Shown one piece after another: positions 25,012-35,032 of a stretch of 64,000 bases of DNA (its first letter is position 1; each line of letters begins with the position of its first letter). Below the pieces are notes generated by a model. The model saw nothing but the letters and a program-made list of their open reading frames with translations, searched no databases and was not told the DNA's origin. Both the position numbers and the translations under genes were made by a program. Origin of the DNA: Patagioenas fasciata (Eukaryota; Chordata; Aves; Columbiformes; Columbidae); assembly GCF_037038585.1 (NCBI RefSeq), contig NC_092541.1, forward strand, positions 1,063,445-1,127,444, written 5' to 3'.

Positions 25012-25022
25012 TCTTGTTTATT
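25006..25022. terminator. Back-to-back poly(A) signals for convergent genes
   Basis: AATAAA lies on the plus strand at 25006-25011 and on the minus strand at 25017-25022, within 17 bp. They are candidate 3' ends for VAT1 (plus) and for the RBM43/DTX3L-like gene (minus), whose stop codon is about 515 bp away. An earlier minus-strand alternative is at 24732-24737. Confidence 0.4.
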
Positions 25023-25535: not shown

Positions 25536-26619
25536 TCAGGCGATGCCCAGTTTCTCCAGCACGGTGCAAACCTCACGGAGATACTGGGAGTCTGGATAAC
25601 CGTTCCTGCGGGGCGGAGAGGGAAGTGGTGTAAATCCTGCTGACGGTGCTAAAACCACAGAGGGGAGCAGCAGTTTATTTTTGCCCTGACCCTCCAAGAA
25701 GGGCTGAGGGTGGAAGTGCTGCTCCCCAGGAGCAGAGCTTGCACCCAGCGCTGGCTGCAGGGCGCTCATGGGAGAAAACAGCAAAGGTGTGAGGGAACGA
25801 GGCCCAGAATTCGCGTTCTTGGGAAATTTAGGGGTGTGGGATGGGCAAGGGCTTTAGCTCCAGCTGGAGGGTGCCAGGGCTGGCCTGTTGCACCACAGAA
25901 GCAAAGGGAGGCACCAACTCTGCCATTGTGGGAGCCTCAAAAGCCACCCACGCCAGGATTTGTTGAGCTGGAGCTCTTAGTTCTCCTCCGATTGCTAAAA
26001 ACAAAGCTCCTGGAAGCTTGGCTGAGCTGGGCTGTACCTGGCTCTGCCTCCATCCCAGGAGGTTTTGTGCAGAATGAGGCCCCATGTCACTCTTTCCTCG
26101 CCGTTGTGGGACTTGATCTGGAAGGTCAGCCCGCGCTCAAAGGCTTTTTTCAGCAGCATCGCCGTCTTCTGCCCGTCCCTGTTGTCAGGCAGGAAGGCAC
26201 AGAAACTGCCCCCTTTGTAAGGCTGCCCTGGGCGGGGGTCGCCAACCTTGGAATGGAAAGAAGGGATATTAAACACCACCTCTTAAACACCAGCAGGAGT
26301 GCTGGGCCGCAGGGCTGGTGTCTGAGAGTCCGGCAGATGGAAACGCACAGGGGACTGCGGCCCCCCCAGGATGCTGCTCCCAAACCTGGGGTGGAGCTTC
26401 GTGCCTTCCACGGGTCAACACAGGCTGCTCTGCAGGGGGACGTGGAGCTGGGGCTGGACCCTTGCTGCAGACAGACAGACAGATGGACGTACAGACAGAC
26501 AGGCACGCAGAGAGACACACACAGAGACACACAAACGCGAACACACAAAGACACACACACACGGACAGGCTCACAGGGACAGACGCACACACGTGGACAC
26601 ACAGACAGACACATGGACA

Positions 26620-26655
<36 letters not shown>

Positions 26656-29600
26656 CACGGACACGGACACACACACAGACCCCACCGCACATCCCGCCGC
26701 AGGCCGGGGAAGCCCGAGGTGCCACCTACCCCCTGCACCCCGTCGGGGATGCTGTAGCCAACCTGCAGCGTGGGGTCTCGGTAGTAACCCGGCAGACTCT
26801 GCGACAGGGACGAGATCCTGAACGTCCCCGAGATCCTGCGGCTCGGGGCAGCCGAGGAGGAGCTGCAGCACGCCGGCTGTGCGCTGTCGCCCGCGAAACA
26901 CGTCCTGCACAAGGCGTGACCGCAGGGGGCCTGGCAGGTCACACCTGAGCCCTGGCAAGCGTCACACCGGCCCAGAGGGGTCTTGCCGCTTTCCTGTCCG
27001 ACGCTGGGACCTCTTGTCTGCTGTGATGAGAGGTCAGAATCCTCCCGCTCGTTGCTCCCGGCCATGGGAAGCAGGGCCCTTCTCTGTCCCTTGGGCTCAG
27101 CCGGAGGTGACAGCTGTGCTGAGGACTCAGGTGGCTCTGCAGCAGGAGCCCTGTACAGCCAGGTGGGCAGGGAGCGAGGGGCACCGTCTGATGCAGGAAC
27201 CGGTGAGCGCAGCTGTCCCGGCACTTCGGTGTGGGCCCCTCTGCCCTTGTCTCTCATTAACTGGAATCTGTCTGGCAAAACCTGCCTTAGTTGGGCCATG
27301 TCAGGCTCCCCCACATGCAGTTTTGGCTTTGGCTGTACCTGGGGTTCCCTCAGAGCAGCAGGACTTGGCTTATCTGCTACACTAGGGCTCAGAAAGCTGC
27401 TTCCTCCTTGCGCAGCCCCAGAATCAACATGGTCATCGGTCTCCTCCTGCCCCAGTGTTTGCTGGAGCCTCCAAGGACTGGGGGATCTCTTTTCCTCAGC
27501 GTCTGATGGCTGGAAAGCCCTGGGCACACCCGTGTGCTCTGCTTTATCGCTGATGTTGAGCTGCTGCAGCCCCATCTGCAGGGACTCCAGGCTGTCGGGA
27601 AGGGCTGCGCCCAGCACCGTGTCCTGAGCAACACTTGAGCGCCCTGTGCTCTCTGGTCCTGGAGACAAGGACGAGGATTTCGGGGCACGGAGCCTCCTGG
27701 AAGAAAACATGTGGAAGGCCTCGGTCACTCCTGGCAGCATCTCCTTGGGACAGACAACGTGTAACTTGTGTTTGTCTTTGCTGAGTACAATTTGGTGGTT
27801 GTTTCTTTGCAAGAGGCTGCACAGCGCGCTCAGGGCAACGTCATCTGGACCATCCACGCCGAGCTCCGAGTAGCTCATGCTCTGGCACGCGAGGTCAGGA
27901 CACTTCTGCACAAGAGCTTCCACCTTCCATTTAGCGTGGAAAAGCTTGTTCCCGCCCGCCGCCCGCAGCGTCAGCACGGTGCAGTCCCCGGCGCGCTGCT
28001 CCGAGATCTGCACACCCCCATCCCTGCACAGTTCATCAATCGCTGCGCGATGAGCGTCCTTCAGGTAACACCACTGCAGAGAGTCCAGGCTCATTTCTTC
28101 ACTCACCCCACCGCCAGCGCCTTGGGGTTTGTCACCTTCCTTTGGCCTGGGCAGGGAGAAGCTGTTGGAACGTCGCAGCACGGGCCTGGAGTCAGAGGGT
28201 TTAGAGTCTAAAGCAGAAGAGGCCCTTGTGGTGTCAAACGTACCAGATGTGCCAGTGAGGGGGTGGGTTCTGATGGGACCTGAGCCCTTCGAGTCCCCAG
28301 GATGCCGTGTGGCGCTGTTTTCTTTGCCCCCAAAGGGAGACGGAGCCTTGTGTCTCAGCCTGGCAACTCCTCTCACGTGGTCCCATTCTTTGGGGTCCTT
28401 GAGCTGAAACTCTGCTGCTGACCCCAAAACCACATCTGTTGGAGAGCCACGAGGCTGGTGCTGCTGGGTCAGCGCTGCTGGGTCACCAAGAGCATCTGTC
28501 TCTGGTAAATGCTTTCCAGAGAGCTGCGCCAGCGGAGGATCCTCATTCAGCAAGGGGCCCTGGCTGGCCTGAGACCTGTCGGCCTTCAGAGTGCTGAAGT
28601 TGGCAGCCAGCTTGAGCTCAGTTTTCAGCTCCGGTTTGCCTGGGCCGAGCTTTGAGGTCAAGGTGTCCACAGGCACTTTGGGTTTGTGCAGCGCAGCCTC
28701 TGCGGTGCGGGAGGTCGCGGGGTGCGAGGGCAGGGAGCTGCCGGCCGCGTGGGCAGCACTTCTTCTGCTCCCGAAATCCTGAAGGTTCTGCTTGGCCTGG
28801 GACACATCGACGAGGTTTCCGATAAGATAAAGCTGCTTCTCGTCCTCGTGACACAGCAACTGGGGATAGAGCTTCTGCAGGTCGCGTGTCAGAGCCTTGA
28901 ATGCCTGGCTGTCCATCTCCAGCCCCGCCTTGGCGATCTTCTCCTTGCGCAAGCTCAGCTCCAGCCGCTGGTAAAGCTGCTGCAGGGCCAGGCGCGCCTG
29001 TCGCAAGGCGTCCATGTCCCCGGGCGTTCCTGTAGATGACTGGAGGTACAGTATGGCGATGCCATCGCTGCTGACATCCACCACGTCCACATGATGCCGG
29101 TGTAGCACACCCTGGTACTCGGCAGCGCAGAACCTCTGCATGTACAAGTAAATGTCCGAGTCCATCACCAGGGAGAAGTCCTCCAGCTGTTCCACAGCTT
29201 CCCCATCCACTGGGCCCCGAGGCGACGGGACTTGCCGTGCCTTTTCCCACACCTGGTCCCAATTCGGCAGCTTTGCCGTCCCTCCTGTTGCCTCCAGGGG
29301 GTCACGCACTTGCTGGTGATCAGACATTCTGGTCTCTTTGGCCACATGGCTGGAATCTGGCAGGAGGATCTCTCCCTCGGCTTGGTTCTTGAGGTTCAGG
29401 CTGCCCAGCAGCTCTCTGCTGAAGGCCTGAAGCTCCGTGAACGGCCCCTTGACGATGCAGTACGTGTTCTTGGAGTCGAAGTTGAACTGCACGTTGCTGT
29501 AGCCTTTTCGCAGGTTCCTCAGAAGGGTTTTGCCAGCAGGAAGTTTGCCGTAGTCAACTATCATGCAAGCGCGTATGAAGATCTGCAGGTAAACAGCGAG

Positions 29601-31226
29601 GGAGTCAGAGAGCAAGGACCAAAAATAAACCCCTCCCAAAGCACAGGGGGAGGCAAATGCACCTGACACTTGCCACAGCCACTAAACCATGATGACAGAA
29701 GAGATGACATGATCCCCCACCTCTCTCTCAGCATCCCGCTGCCAGGATGGGAATATAACACAGGCAGGACCGAAAGACCCAGCCAGCCCATAGCCAAAGG
29801 CTTTTTGCAACCAAGGAACGTGAGGGGCAGGTTGCACAGGGATGTGGGCCCCCTACGCACGCCCTCTGCAAACAGCCCAAACCAAATAACTCCACTATCG
29901 CTTCTGCATCTAGAAGGCAGTTGCCCTCTTGCTGTCCCAGACCTTTGAGCACTCTGGCACTACAGCCTTGCGGAAGCGTCTGCAATGCCAAGCGAACTCC
30001 CGTGCCCTTGTTTTCAGTGCTCAGACATGAAAACAAGAGATGTGGTGACTGCCATACTCTCCTGAAATTGGAAGAGGAGATGAGAACCCTCCAGTGCCTC
30101 CCAGACACCAGCATGTCTGTCTCCTAAGCTTTCCTGACAAGGAAAGAGGAAAAACACCCTGTGTGTCTCCAGCTAACGACACTAACGACATTAACAGGAT
30201 CCCCTGTGTGCCACTAGATGGGCTGGGGAAAAGTGCCCCTTCCCTCCAGCCTGACTGTTCTTCCTCGCTTTGACAGCCACAAACACCAAAGGACCGAGTG
30301 CAGAGCCCGCCTGGCTGACCCCGTGTTATTAGCAGAGAAAAAGAATAATAATCCTTCATTTTAATATGAATAAAAATGGATTTGCTTTACAGAATCACAG
30401 ACAGAGTGGATGGTGTTAAGGGACCCCTGTGGATCCCCAGCCCTGCTCACGCAGGGTCCCAGAGCAGATCACACAGGATCCCAGGGGGTTTGAATGGCTC
30501 AGAGAAGGAGACTCCACACCCGCTCTGGGCAGCCTGGGCCAGGCTCTGGCACCGCAAAGGAAAGAAGTTTCTCCTGGTGTTCAGATGGAGCCTCCTGTGT
30601 TTCAGTCTGTGCCCGTTGCCCCTCACCCTGGCGCTGGGCACCGCTGAACAGTGTGGTCCATCCTGACACCTACCCTGAGACATTGATCCCATTGATCAGA
30701 TCCCTCTCAGCTTCTCCAGCTGAGCAGCCCCATCTCTCTCAGCCTTTCCTCACAATAAACGTGCTCCAGACCCTCGGTCTTTATCACAACACGCTGCCCG
30801 CTCTCGCTACCTCATCAGGGCTCAGCTCCGCCACATGCGCCGTCACCTCCAGCGGGTATTTCTTCCCTCCCACGGACAAGACGTGATCCTTGGCCTCCAG
30901 GACCCTCTGTGCCACTGTGTGGGACAAGACCCGGCGTCAGCCCGGGCCCAGGAGCGGCCGCCGCGGCGCAGGGGGGGACACGGGGCGGCCGGGGGGACCC
31001 CTTGGGGCGGCCGGGGGGACCCCTTGGGGCGGCCGTTACCTTCCGGAGCCTCGAAGGCGATGAGGGCGCAGGGCGGGGGCCCGGGCAGCACCCGCAGCTC
31101 CGCGATCTCGCCGCCGCCGTTGCGGGAGCGCAGGAAGTGGATGGTCAGCTTGTCGGCCAGGCGGTCGGCGGGCAGCTCGGCGGGGAGCCCGCTCACCCGC
31201 ACCGTGCGGCCCGCCGCGCCCGCCAT
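25536..31226 (-). CDS. RBM43/DTX3L-like protein with Deltex C-terminal domain
   Basis: Likely an interferon-inducible, cytoplasmic or nuclear RNA- or ADP-ribose-related ubiquitin ligase; the function is inferred from domains only. Exons: 31226-31040, 30914-30811, 29582-26730, 26246-26038, 25605-25536. All junctions are GT/AG and the sum is 3423 nt, about 1140 residues. Residues 1-97 form an RRM/NID-type module ([17 protein letters not shown], then RNGGGE). Residues about 98-165 form a second RRM-like module ([18 protein letters not shown]). Next comes a KH-like stretch ([13 protein letters not shown]) resembling the rest of RBM43. About 400 residues of Ser/Pro-rich linker include another KH-like copy. 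A degenerate RING follows at about 970-1005 ([14 protein letters not shown]). The Deltex C-terminal fold occupies about 1010-1140 ([32 protein letters not shown]). It lies in tandem with IFI35. DTX3L is the closest C-terminal match, but this is not the DTX3L-PARP9 locus. Confidence 0.88.
26468..26690 (+). repeat. CA-rich compound microsatellite in intron 3
   Basis: Imperfect cagacaga/cacacaga/cacgga units run for about 200 bp and include a pure (ca)n core at about 26625-26652. The block ends about 40 bp from the donor of the 2.85-kb exon 3 of the RBM43/DTX3L-like gene (exon end 26730). The open frames across it are artefacts. Confidence 0.92.
30388..30785 (-). repeat. Older CR1 LINE (CR1-Y-like) in intron 2
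   Basis: Antisense CR1 with the blocks caggatcccagggggtttga, gagaaggagactccacaccc and aagtttctcctggtgttcag, typical of the CR1-Y/F consensus as I remember it. It is more diverged than the family A and B copies. It ends within about 25 bp of the donor of exon 2 of the RBM43/DTX3L-like gene. Confidence 0.8.
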
Positions 31227-31379
31227 GCCCGCCGCGCCCCGAGCCCCGGCAGCAGCGCCGCCCGCCCCGCGGGGCTGCGTCCCGGGCCTGGGTTTCACAC
31301 TCCCCGCTCAGGGCCCCGGCGCAGCCCCTGCCCGGCCCCGCTGCCCGCAGCACCGCGGCCCGGGCCCTAACGCAACCGG

Positions 31380-31395
31380 GAAACGAAAGCGAAAG
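31380..31395 (-). promoter_or_regulatory. ISRE: triple GAAA array
   Basis: The sequence GAAACGAAAGCGAAAG contains three GAAA cores spaced by two bases, which fits the IRF/ISGF3 consensus GAAANNGAAA twice over. It lies about 155 bp upstream of the ATG of the RBM43/DTX3L-like gene, in its CpG-rich promoter (about 30940-31480). This is a strong sign that the gene is interferon-inducible. Confidence 0.8.
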
Positions 31396-31492
31396 CCGGG
31401 CCGCCCCGCCTCGGCCGGCACCGCCCCCGGCCCGGCCCGACAGAGCCGCAGTGCCCACAGAGCCCGGGGCTCTTGCGGTGGGGCCGGTTCTC

Positions 31493-31922
31493 ATACAATC
31501 ACAGAACGGTTTGGGTTGGAGGGACCTCCCCAGCTCCCCCAGTGCCCCCCCTGCCATGACAGGGACATCTTCACCAGCCCAGGGTGCTCAGAGCCCCGTC
31601 CAGCCTGGCCTGGGATGTCTCCAGGGATGGTTCATCCACCACCTCTCTGGCCAACCTGGGCCAGGCTCTCACCACCCTCAGGGCACCAATTCCTTCCTCA
31701 TGTCCAGCCTGAATCTCCCTCCTCTAGTTTCAAACCATCACCCCTTGTCCTACCACAACAGGCCCTGCAAAAATGTCTGTCCCCATCTTTAAGTCCAAAA
31801 AGGCCACAATAAGGTCTCCCCAGAGCTTCTGTTCTCCAGCTGAACACCCCAGCTCTCTCAGCCTGTCCCCCAGTAGAGCTGTTCCAGCCTTGGAGGGGCT
31901 CCTCTGGCCCCTCTCCAGCAGG
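31493..31922 (-). repeat. CR1 LINE between IFI35 and its neighbour (family A)
   Basis: The longest family A copy, in antisense orientation, running from the 3' end (cacagaacggtttgggttgg) back past the ataaggtctccccagagctt block. It begins about 100 bp upstream of the ISRE and runs into a pentanucleotide repeat. Confidence 0.92.
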
Positions 31923-32014
31923 TCATCCCCATCCCATCCCATCCTCCCATCCCATCCCATCCCATCCCATCCCATCCCATCCCATCCCATCCCATCCCAT
32001 CCCATCCCATCCCA
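31921..32014 (+). repeat. ATCCC pentanucleotide microsatellite
   Basis: About 17 copies of catcc/cccat with one or two interruptions. It abuts the 5' end of the CR1 at 31493-31922 and lies just past the IFI35 poly(A) signal. Confidence 0.95.
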
Positions 32015-32040
32015 ACAGACACAGAGCTCCCTGCAGATGC

Positions 32041-32095: not shown

Positions 32096-35032
32096 TTAAC
32101 CCACGTCCTCCGTGAAAACGGCCACAGCCTGGCGACCCGCTGGGACATAGGCGAGCGCGTCCACCTCTCCCCCGCCGCGGCTGGCCTTCTGGAAGTGGAT
32201 CTCCAGGGTGTCCCTCATGGCCTCCTGACCCAGCACGTCTGGGATCCCCGAGAGCAGGACAGTCCGGGGGCAGCGGGAGGGCTGGAGCTGGGCAGAGCCG
32301 GGTATGAGCCCCTGTGCCGCGGGGGGCAGCCGCAAGGGACCCCCCCCATGGAAGGGATCCCCTTGGGCCACTTGCTGAGCAGGGTGAGACGCTGCTCTGC
32401 TCAGGAACTGTGCCCCGGGCTGCATGGTGACGGGGAAAAGGGGCTTCAGGAGCCCCCAGGCATGCAGGCTCACCCTGGGCTTGCAGGTGCTGCTTGGCCA
32501 TGGGGCTCACGCTCTTACCTGCAGGTCAATGACGTCTCCGCTCATGTACGGTGATATTTTGATGTCGTATTTCCCCTTCCCAATAAGCACCTGCATGCGT
32601 CCTCTCGCAATGAGCGGCTCAGCCACTGCAGATGGAGAGGAAAGCCCTGAGCCGCCCAGGCCCCCGCTGGGCTCCCAGGAGGTGACATCCCTGGCACAGA
32701 CACCGAGGCCAGCACTGTGCAGCCCACCTCACCTGTCTAGGGGAGACAGGGCAGGCTGGGCTCACTCTGCCTTCCCCATTCCCCACACACACAGCTCCAT
32801 CTGCACTCAGGAAACGACATGAGCCCCCCCAGAGCAATCTGGGCTGCTCCCCCCTTGCTGGCAGCCCAAGCTCAGCATGTCCCACGCACCTCCGTCCTGC
32901 ACGAAGGTCAGCACCACCTGGTTGGAGTTGTCCAGGAACTCCCTGCTCTCCACCTCGCCGCCTCCATTCTTCGTCTTGCTGAAGAAGAGCTCCAGCTTGT
33001 CCAGCAGGGCCTCCTCGGGGATGCCCAGGCTGGGCAGGTCAGATACCAGGATAGTCCTGCTGCTCCGAGTCAGCCCAATCTGCGGGTGGCACAGGCTGGT
33101 CAGGGCCAGGACAGGGCTGTCCCCGGAGCTGCGGCACTAATGTACCGAGCTGGGCCGGTACCAGCAACCTGGCAGACACAAGCTTAGGCGGACACAGCGA
33201 AGCCGGAGCACACCCAGGGCAGCTCTGCGGTTCTGCGCAGCCCTCGGGACCCACCTCCAGGGCAGACGGCAGCAGCAGCTCCACCGGCGCTGCCTGCACT
33301 CGCACCTTGCAGCAGTCAAGCTCCTCCAGCTCCTCCCCGCAGCTCAGCTCCACCACGTGCTCCTTCAGGTCTATGATCGTCTGGGCCACTGTGGGCAGGG
33401 AGAGCCCCCAGCTCAGGGGATCGAGCGACTGCTCCGAGCGTGTTGTGGGGACACGGGGCAGACAACGCTTTGGGGGGGCATAACCCCACATAATGCTGGC
33501 AGGGGGGCAGAGCTCTGAGCCCCAGCCCAGGGAGGGGACGCAGGGCAGGGCCTGAAGCCAATGGACACCTGGCTGCGGCAGCGCTTGTCTGGCTCTTACC
33601 CTCTGCCTTCTCAAAGGTGATGAGAGCTGAGCCCCCCAGCAGAGGGTAGCGGACCAGCGGGGTGAGGATCAGCTTGTTCACATCCTCCTTGTTTGTCTCA
33701 AGTCCCTTAAACACCATTTTCTTCTCTGGCAAGGCAGGCAGCATCTAGGGTTGAGTGCACAGACAGCACCTGGAGGAGACTGAACCCCACACAGGGCCTG
33801 TCCCTGCCCACCCGCAGACTAGAAATGAGCTCATGGCTCGAAATAAACAGCGACAGAGCCTCAGCAGAGTCTCTCCTGGGGTCTGGCTGTGCCTGGAATT
33901 GTGGCCTTGGGAAAAGCAGGAGCTGTGCCAGTTGTCACACACATCCAGCTGTTTGCCTGCAGATCCCCAGCCAGGCTCGCGCCCCTCGCCAGCTCAGCCG
34001 GGTGCCCGCACGCAGTTACCGTCACCGGATCCTCCCAGCAGAACCTCTGCCTCGCTTCTTCCAGTTTCTTCTCCAGCACCTGCTTCTCCAGACTCAGTCT
34101 GTCCCTCTCCTCCTTTGCTAAGAAAATGTCCATCTGGAAGGAAGGAAGGAAAGGGGGGGCAGTGAGGGAACCCCCAGGATGCCAGGGGCTGCAGCACACT
34201 CTCCATTCCCAGCACAGGTCTTGGACGCTGCTCCACCCACACGGTTTTTCTGGAGCTCTGCCCTGGCTCCTTGTGTTTGACCCCAGCCCTTCCTCCACCA
34301 CTGCAGCACTCACCCCCTTTTTTGGCACAGTCCTGATGTGATCCCGCAAAACCTCCACCGGGTGCGGAGCAAAGTGATCTCAGAGCAGCGAGCCGGGTGA
34401 CACAGTCCCACCAGCCACTGCCCGCCCCCCCAAGCCCACGCCACCTCCCTCCGACCGCCAACCTGCCAGTATTCCACTTCATCCCTGCTTAAAATCTTTT
34501 GCTGCTCCAAAGTTTTACGAAGAAGTTCTCCCTCTTCCCTCAGATCTCGTGTCCTTTGCTCTACAGCTTCCTTGGCCGCTTGTAGCTTTGCGTGGTCTTG
34601 CTCCAGAGCGCTGCAAAGCTCCTGGGAGAGGCACCATCAGACAGCGAGACCCTGCGGACCTTGTGCCACCCCCAAAACACGCTGCTCTTTTGGGAAGGGG
34701 GTGGCTGCCCCCCGTGTGGAGCCCCGGTCCCCACTGTAGGTTCTCATAACCGTGGGGCGTCCCCTCTGGGATCATAACCCCAGCAAAAATAAGAAACTCA
34801 AGCTCACAGCCCGAGCTGGTCGGATCCGACCCCGTTCCTCCCCCTCTCACCTTGCAACGCTCGATCTCCTGCCGGATTTGCGCCGGGGTCCCCTCCGGGG
34901 TGTCGCCCTCCAGCTCCCCGGGCTGGGACAGCTGGATGAAGGAGTCCTGGGGACAGCAGGGTCCCTCAGCCGGGCTGCGAGCCCGGCACCCCCCGACCCC
35001 CGGGGCTCACCCCTCACCTCCTCCGAGTCCAT
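32096..35032 (-). CDS. IFI35: IFI35, interferon-induced 35 kDa protein
   Basis: IFI35 partners with NMI and modulates innate signalling. It has an N-terminal coiled coil and NMI/IFP35 (NID) domains, and can act in the cytosol or be released as a danger signal. Exons read: 35032-35018, 34946-34851, 34621-34463, 34133-34020, 33744-33600, 33388-33255, 33079-32890, 32625-32519, 32287-32096. These sum to 1152 nt, 383 residues (human about 286). The coiled-coil part spans exons 2-4 of this list (QIRQEIERCK, EERDRLSLEKQVLEKKLEEA). The NID modules show PLLGGSALITFEKAE, SRTILVSDLP with KNGGGEVE, and CPRTVLLSGIPDVL with SRGGGEVDALAY. The C-terminus AVFTEDVG closely resembles human. A possible extra exon near 34380-34316 (VEVLRDHIRTVPKKG) was left out because its acceptor does not fit the phase of the preceding donor. 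An alternative donor at about 34456 would make it fit. Confidence 0.9.
34137..34156 (-). repeat. Short GGAA repeat
   Basis: Four or five ggaa units lie directly upstream of the acceptor of the IFI35 exon at 34133. On the coding strand this is a ttcc-rich polypyrimidine tract, so it may simply serve the splice site. Confidence 0.6.

What the first reader, a model, noticed from the sequence alone, without database searches (positions are those of the whole stretch)
25536..31226. Chimera-like RBM43 + RING + Deltex gene between IFI35 and VAT1
Seen: five exons summing to 3423 nt, an N-terminal third that follows RBM43 over its whole length (RRM-like start, second module, then a DTDxFLY-like [10 protein letters not shown] segment), and a Deltex C-terminal domain with [13 protein letters not shown] and GYPDSQYL. 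Known: human has no gene between IFI35 and VAT1 as I recall; human RBM43 sits next to NMI, the IFI35 paralogue; DTX3L sits with PARP9/PARP14. Inference: an ancestral pair 'NID gene + RBM43-type gene' was duplicated, one copy being NMI-RBM43 and the other IFI35 plus this gene. Mammals would then have lost the second partner, or lost the Deltex end from RBM43. It could be a poorly described avian antiviral ubiquitin ligase.
Basis: partly seen in the sequence, partly recalled or inferred. Interest (0 to 1): 0.9.

Follow-up and report, generated by a model that had tools for sequence, protein, structure and literature searches.

The report
Deltex-like partner gene of bird IFI35
A bird genome carries, next to the interferon-response gene IFI35, an intact gene that looks like the full-length version of the shortened gene RBM43 with a Deltex-type ubiquitin-ligase end whose key residues are changed, which suggests an immune protein that regulates or binds rather than catalyses.

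Summary
A minus-strand five-exon gene model (3423 nt, 1140 codons) lies between IFI35 and VAT1. Residues 1-367 match this genome's RBM43 (z=27, 0 of 500 shuffles); the end is a Deltex C-terminal domain (Pfam E=2e-29). RBM43-like KH part and Deltex start share one open 951-codon exon. "Chimera" is not the best word: exon layout and phases match DTX3L, so RRM-KH-RING-DTC looks ancestral and RBM43 truncated. The duplication idea gains strong support: CACNB - NID gene - RRM/KH gene - RND lie in the same order on two contigs (with NMI-RBM43 on one, IFI35-this gene on the other), as expected of whole-genome-duplication ohnologs. "Ubiquitin ligase" is doubtful: the DTC residues equivalent to DTX3L H707, Y719 and E733 are L, N and V, whereas 5 of 5 other Deltex genes here keep the H and E; one RING zinc ligand is Q and no RING model matches significantly. 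A 20-base ISRE-like word upstream occurs exactly twice in 1.45 Gb, here and before DTX3L, so interferon control is likely. Best reading: an interferon-inducible pseudo-Deltex scaffold, ohnolog of RBM43. Transcription, orthologues in other species and biochemistry could not be tested.

The parts
31040..31226 (-). exon 1, start codon at 31226; first part of an NID-like RRM
30811..30914 (-). exon 2; second part of the RRM (intron phases 1 and 0)
26730..29582 (-). exon 3, 951 open codons: KH1-like, RBM43-like KH tandem, putative second KH tandem, degenerate RING, start of DTC
29394..29582 (-). residues 98-160, KH1 / DTX3L alpha-beta-like by position; strand-helix-strand-strand-helix in a single-sequence model; no significant sequence match
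28767..29195 (-). residues 227-369, tandem KH-like region, closest to RBM43
27699..28100 (-). residues 592-725, putative second KH-like tandem (weak evidence)
26865..26966 (-). degenerate RING, residues 970-1003; zinc ligand 7 is Q999
26730..26828 (-). Deltex C-terminal domain (DTC), first part, in exon 3
26038..26246 (-). exon 4, middle of DTC; L1107 at the position of the catalytic His
25536..25605 (-). exon 5, end of DTC and stop codon; N1119 and V1133 at the positions of Y719 and E733 of DTX3L
31377..31396 (+). ISRE-like 20-mer CGGGAAACGAAAGCGAAAGC upstream of the start codon; its only other exact copy in the genome is before DTX3L
25017..25022 (-). AATAAA, 513 bases after the stop codon

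Best explanation
This is an intact gene of the DTX3L/RBM43 kind: NID-like RRM, KH-like modules, a degenerate RING and a Deltex C-terminal domain. It is the duplicate (ohnolog) of RBM43, as its neighbour IFI35 is of NMI, and it kept the RING-DTC end that RBM43 lost. It is probably switched on by interferon through the ISRE-like element upstream. Mechanism proposed: it does not ubiquitylate ADP-ribose or nucleic acid itself. It uses its RRM and KH modules to bind RNA or partner proteins (IFI35/NMI through the NID-like RRM; DTX3L or PARP14/PARP9 through KH modules), and its dead RING-DTC competes with or tethers the active DTX3L complex. Shown here: gene structure, homologies, syntenic block, changed catalytic residues, shared promoter word. 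Inferred: transcription, interferon induction, loss of activity, binding partners, dominant-negative or scaffold action.
For: Gene model and open frame. Domains. N-terminus: RBM43 z=27.1 (0 of 500) against DTX3L z=4.3 (2 of 500); KH tandem: RBM43 z=10.7, DTX3L z=1.9; DTC: DTX3L z=45.7. Same exon phases 1-0-0-2 as DTX3L; RBM43 has phases 1-0 and stops inside exon 3. Block: CACNB C10:2.179 Mb, NMI 2.424, RBM43 2.431, RND 2.564; CACNB C29:2.255, IFI35 1.096, this gene 1.095-1.089, RND 1.072 (gene names given by me). Catalytic positions L/N/V; His and Glu kept in 5 of 5 other Deltex genes of the genome; their role seen in passages of PMC10810221, PMC7615817 and PMC11460948. RING ligand 7 is Q and the best Pfam RING hit has E=0.45, against 2.9e-10 for DTX3L of the same genome. 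The promoter word occurs exactly twice in 1.45 Gb.
Against: No transcript or orthologue was seen, so expression and selection are untested. The DTC tree is unresolved with a very long branch for this gene, which also fits decay. The clade {this, RBM43} was not recovered in the short RRM tree, only not rejected (p-AU 0.342). The KH1 and KH4-5 regions show no significant pairwise similarity to either relative. The structure models are weak (mean pLDDT 64.6 and 42.5) and the 50 Foldseek rows listed are mostly aspartate-kinase regulatory domains and engineered ferredoxin folds at TM about 0.3, none named as KH. An unpaired Cys sits next to RING ligand 8 and might still bind zinc. The block rests on four gene families; the genes between them were not examined. 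Partner binding rests on analogy only.
Confidence: 0.55

Rival explanations
1. An active antiviral Deltex E3 ligase with altered chemistry, for example lysine ubiquitylation without the ADP-ribose-directed His/Glu.
For: DTC fold signature strong; 7 of 8 RING ligands kept plus an extra Cys. PMC10810221 says that His/Glu are needed for ADPr but not for canonical lysine ubiquitylation (passage).
Against: RING ligand 7 is Q and no RING model matches below E=0.45; the RING has lost residues between ligands 6 and 7 against DTX3L and DTX3.
Confidence: 0.15
2. A true chimera: an RBM43-type gene beside IFI35 that later captured a Deltex end.
For: N-terminus RBM43-like, C-terminus closest to DTX3L.
Against: Exon layout and all four intron phases equal those of DTX3L, which itself has RRM and KH domains; the KH part and the start of DTC lie in one exon.
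Confidence: 0.12
3. A second copy of DTX3L moved next to IFI35.
For: Same architecture; identical 20-base promoter word; DTC closest to DTX3L among five Deltex genes.
Against: The RRM clade {this, DTX3L} is rejected (p-AU 0.0006); N-terminal similarity is far higher to RBM43; the block order points to duplication in place.
Confidence: 0.08
4. A decaying gene or recent pseudogene with the frame still open by chance.
For: Changed catalytic residues and long branch.
Against: 1140 codons open, all splice sites canonical, ISRE-like element and poly(A) signal in place.
Confidence: 0.1

Closest known systems
RBM43
   Same: NID-like RRM, KH tandem, intron phases 1-0, lies downstream of an NID gene (NMI) on the same strand, in an equivalent CACNB...RND block
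   Different: RBM43 here ends after KH3 (342 residues in my model, whose 5' end is uncertain); no significant RING/DTC remnant in the 12.9 kb downstream
DTX3L (BBAP)
   Same: RRM - KH - RING - DTC architecture, five coding exons with phases 1-0-0-2, identical 20-base ISRE-like promoter word
   Different: DTX3L sits near PARP14-like RRM exons, its RRM groups with a PARP14-like RRM1, and it keeps RING and catalytic His/Glu; this gene has long linkers (about 220 and 245 residues) and has lost these residues
IFI35 / NMI (NID proteins)
   Same: the RRM scores above the Pfam NID cut-off and matches the solved IFI35 NID (E=6e-11)
   Different: one NID-like RRM only, no tandem NIDs; KH, RING and DTC regions are not part of IFI35/NMI (recall)
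DTX3
   Same: last two introns at matching positions (my reading); lies on the third RND/CACNB contig (C35)
   Different: no RRM seen in its exon; intact RING and catalytic residues; DTX3 is 2.4 Mb from the RND and CACNB genes of that contig

Membership tests
Deltex E3 ligases | Deltex C-terminal domain | tested here: met
   Pfam DTC E=2e-29, 102.9 bits against a cut-off of 25
Deltex E3 ligases | RING with eight zinc ligands before DTC | tested here: not met
   7 of 8 aligned ligands; ligand 7 is Q999; no RING model below E=0.45
Deltex E3 ligases | catalytic His and Glu of DTC (DTX2 H582/E608, DTX3L H707/E733) | tested here: not met
   L1107 and V1133; 5 of 5 other Deltex genes of the genome keep H and E
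Deltex E3 ligases | ubiquitin transfer activity | not testable with these tools
   needs biochemistry
DTX3L orthologue | location beside PARP9/PARP14 | tested here: not met
   DTX3L is at C10:10.496 Mb near PARP14-like RRM exons; this gene is on C29
DTX3L orthologue | RRM groups with DTX3L | tested here: not met
   clade rejected, p-AU 0.0006
RBM43 family | sequence similarity along RRM and KH2-3 | tested here: met
   z=27.1, 0 of 500 shuffles
RBM43 family | protein ends after the KH region | tested here: not met
   exon 3 runs on to RING and DTC in the same frame
RBM43 ohnolog | equivalent block of neighbouring gene families | tested here: met
   CACNB - NID gene - RRM/KH gene - RND on C10 and C29
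RBM43 ohnolog | sister to RBM43 in a tree with other vertebrates | tested here: inconclusive
   only one genome available; {this, RBM43} neither recovered nor rejected
NID family (IFI35/NMI) | tandem NID domains | tested here: not met
   both NID stretches lie within residues 1-97, that is one RRM; exon 3 alone has no NID match

The most novel reading that the evidence does not exclude
One pre-vertebrate RRM-KH-RING-DTC gene beside an NID gene was copied by whole-genome duplication into the RND/CACNB paralogon and then split three ways: RBM43 kept the front (beside NMI), DTX3 kept the back (RND1 contig), and this gene kept the whole length but turned into an interferon-induced pseudo-Deltex paired with IFI35, later lost in mammals.
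Probability: 0.3. Interest if true: 0.78.

Novelty: new variant of a known kind. Interest (0 to 1): 0.62.

Why it matters
It would give RBM43, a protein of unclear role, an ancestry (a Deltex-type gene that lost its ligase end), tie the IFI35/NMI and DTX3L/PARP9/PARP14 interferon pathways to one gene neighbourhood, and add what would be the first Deltex-type protein with lost catalytic residues that I know of (recall; passages of two papers, call His/Glu strictly conserved). Birds would have an interferon-response component that human-based gene lists miss, which is testable in interferon-treated bird cells.

Tried and rejected
Viral contigs were scanned for relatives with the whole protein: no pattern matched. 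Prokaryote and metagenome collections were not scanned (no use for a vertebrate gene; no metagenome scan was allowed). The two structure jobs gave weak models; the Foldseek hits were set aside as uninformative. A tblastn search for RING/DTC remnants around RBM43 found nothing better than E=1.3 (downstream part: 2.0), so its truncation left no visible fossil there. Similarity of DTX3's N-terminal part to the KH2-3 region is only suggestive: z=4.9, 0 of 500 shuffles against this gene, but z=1.7 or less against the four other KH segments tested, and the aligned piece is 38 columns long and helix-rich. The DTC tree was unresolved. A DNA search with the promoter told nothing: I had typed the query loosely; its first 17 letters did not match and the rest matched the window at 91%. 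My first splice model had two junctions off by one base and was corrected.

Papers: 10 searches, open-licence PMC only. In their listings I saw no paper that links RBM43 to DTX3L or describes a gene between IFI35 and VAT1; 4 papers hold both DTX3L and RBM43, seen as listing only and on unrelated topics by title. Nine papers were seen as passages only.

Full report
Gene. The finding's coordinates and exon count are exact. On the minus strand, exons 31226-31040, 30914-30811, 29582-26730, 26246-26038 and 25605-25536 join with canonical GT/AG sites into 3423 nt, 1140 residues. Exon 3 is 2853 nt and fully open; in 300 first-order Markov simulations the longest open stretch was 363 codons. The RBM43-like KH region (residues 227-369) and the RING remnant with the start of DTC (970-1048) lie in this same exon, so separate genes are unlikely whatever the splicing of the small exons.

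Domains. Pfam finds DTC (1016-1139, E=2e-29), NID (best stretch 5-42, E=1.3e-15), RRM_PARP14_1 (15-86, E=3.9e-10), RRM_PARP14_3 (8-75, E=5.5e-05, just below cut-off) and, below its cut-off, KH_DTX3L (238-362, E=0.0028). Both NID stretches fall within residues 1-97; exon 3 alone has only the weak KH_DTX3L match. By sequence, the nearest solved structures are the DTX2, DTX3L and DTX1 DTC domains, and IFI35/NMI NIDs for the front; the KH2-3 piece has no meaningful match there (best E=0.47). Residues 592-725 may be a second KH tandem: the profile score of 18.9 exceeded all 50 shuffles (best 17.5) but with only 2.5% probability; a single-sequence AlphaFold model of 593-754 shows two strand-helix-strand-strand-helix units at pLDDT 64.6; Foldseek's top rows were aspartate-kinase regulatory domains and engineered ferredoxin folds with TM about 0.3. 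This part stays open. The model of residues 98-372 is poor (pLDDT 42.5), with a better first 60 residues (block means 52-85).

Relatives in the same genome. The genome (1.45 Gb, 359 contigs; bird-like by gene order and repeats, my judgement) has DTC matches on six contigs: C10, C35, C23, C21, C5 and C29, this gene (13 exon matches). I rebuilt RBM43 (C10:2.43 Mb) and DTX3L (C10:10.496 Mb). Residues 1-367 score z=27.1 against RBM43 (0 of 500 shuffles) and z=4.3 against DTX3L (2 of 500). By part, RBM43 then DTX3L: RRM 22.7, 7.5; KH1 0.7, 1.3; KH2-3 10.7, 1.9; linker 363-592 -0.6, 1.4; KH4-5 1.1, 0.8; RING -0.1, 3.8; DTC 0.9, 45.7. The DTC core scores best with DTX3L (183), then DTX3 (151) and the three others (150, 135, 129). 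A tree of nine RRM/NID exon pieces groups DTX3L with a PARP14-like RRM1 (100/99) and rejects {this, DTX3L} (p-AU 0.0006); {this, RBM43} and {this, RBM43, four NIDs} are not rejected (0.342, 0.335) nor recovered.

Exon layout. This gene and DTX3L both have phases 1, 0, 0, 2; RBM43 has 1, 0 and stops inside exon 3; DTX3 seems to share the last two intron positions (splice sites of DTX3L, RBM43 and DTX3 chosen by eye). DTX3L itself has an RRM and five KH domains (PMC10810221, PMC11080071, passages). So RRM-KH-RING-DTC is most simply the ancestral form and RBM43 a truncation; no significant RING/DTC remnant is found in 12.9 kb downstream of RBM43.

Neighbourhood. NID matches were found only at NMI, RBM43, IFI35 and this gene (7 matches from 8 scored candidates). 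With two RND2 exons of the window as query, 14 matches came back: the window itself (100% and 97%), C10:2.564 Mb (86% and 84%), C35:3.708 Mb (79% and 63%), and eight others at 43-64% identity, one of which (C3) has the best E-value because its match lies in one exon; I take the first three as RND2, RND3 and RND1. The CACNB N-terminal family has four places: C2, C10:2.179, C29:2.255, C35:3.721 Mb. Hence CACNB - NMI - RBM43 - RND on C10 and CACNB - IFI35 - this gene - RND on C29 (VAT1 lies between this gene and RND2), with NID gene, RRM/KH gene and RND in the same relative orientation; CACNB is turned. CACNB is 1.16 Mb from IFI35 on C29 and 0.24 Mb from NMI on C10; genes between were not examined. 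C35 has RND and CACNB 12 kb apart and DTX3 2.4 Mb away. This is the pattern of a whole-genome-duplication paralogon; the match to human 2q23, 17q21 and 12q13 is recalled, not tested.

Catalysis. DTX3L H707, Y719 and E733 (DTX2 H582, H594, E608) matter for ubiquitylating ADP-ribose and single-stranded nucleic acid (passages of PMC11460948, PMC7615817 and PMC10810221). The aligned residues here are L1107, N1119 and V1133. The His and Glu are kept in 5 of 5 other Deltex genes of this genome; the middle position is F in DTX3L and DTX3 and H in the other three. In the RING, ligand 7 is Q999, with an extra Cys after ligand 8; the best RING model gives E=0.45, against 2.9e-10 for DTX3L. A Deltex-type catalytic role on ADP-ribose is therefore unlikely.

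Control. Upstream of the start codon (31377-31396) lies CGGGAAACGAAAGCGAAAGC. Exactly two copies were found in the genome: here and just before DTX3L, where its 19-base core begins 36 bases before the start codon (here 170 bases, in the opposite orientation to the gene); the pattern read backwards gave 0. With up to 2 mismatches there are 7 sites (control 2), one of them 56 bases before a PARP14-like RRM match. Longest shared word of the two 500-base promoters: 20, against at most 15 in 200 simulated pairs. The loose pattern GAAANNGAAA as such is not rare in the window (5 found, 1.36 expected; 4 of 100 shuffles reach 5), and none of the 5 lies between 31.4 and 47.7 kb, where IFI35 starts. A cross-species table on avian influenza lists IFI35, NMI, RBM43, PARP9 and PARP14 together for chicken, duck, goose and turkey (PMC10011077, passage; DTX3L does not occur in its text). 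A chicken region list names RPL27, IFI35, VAT1 and RND2 in order without a gene between IFI35 and VAT1 (PMC7240924, passage).

Mechanism. I commit to an interferon-induced, catalytically dead Deltex-type scaffold: RRM/KH modules bind partners or RNA, and the altered RING-DTC tethers or competes with DTX3L complexes. Supporting analogies: NIDs mediate association of IFI35 and NMI (PMC13030082, passage), and KH modules of DTX3L bind PARP9 and PARP14 (PMC11080071 and PMC13224862, passages). I give about 0.85 to 'RBM43-type gene with a Deltex end in an ohnologous block', 0.75 to 'no Deltex catalysis', 0.75 to 'interferon-controlled' and 0.4 to the scaffold or competitor role.

Limits. One genome, no transcripts, no orthologues; public vertebrate records could not be searched, so the gene may already carry an automatic name such as a DTX3L-like or RBM43-like label in some birds.

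Noticed in passing
L022 (C35:6114000-6123999, minus strand): DTX3's N-terminal part resembles the KH2-3 region of this gene (z=4.9, 0 of 500 shuffles) and DTX3 lies on the contig with the third RND and CACNB genes: it may be a back-end remnant of the same ancestral gene.
   Followed up: partly
C10:10503892-10504053 and C10:10523969-10524130 (L030, L031): Two PARP14-like genes with nearly identical first RRM exons, so perhaps a recent tandem duplication; the second has a 2-mismatch copy of the shared ISRE-like word 56 bases upstream of the RRM match.
   Followed up: no
window 32096-32300: The last IFI35 exon stops soon after the third strand of the second NID, which looks shortened.
   Followed up: no
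window 26460-26690: Intron 3 holds a long CA-rich microsatellite that creates spurious open frames on both strands.
   Followed up: no
window 31920-32015: CCCAT/TCCCA tandem repeat between IFI35 and this gene.
   Followed up: no
L020 (DTX3L, C10): This bird's DTX3L has Phe where human DTX3L has Tyr719 in the ADP-ribose pocket; its DTX3 has Phe too.
   Followed up: no
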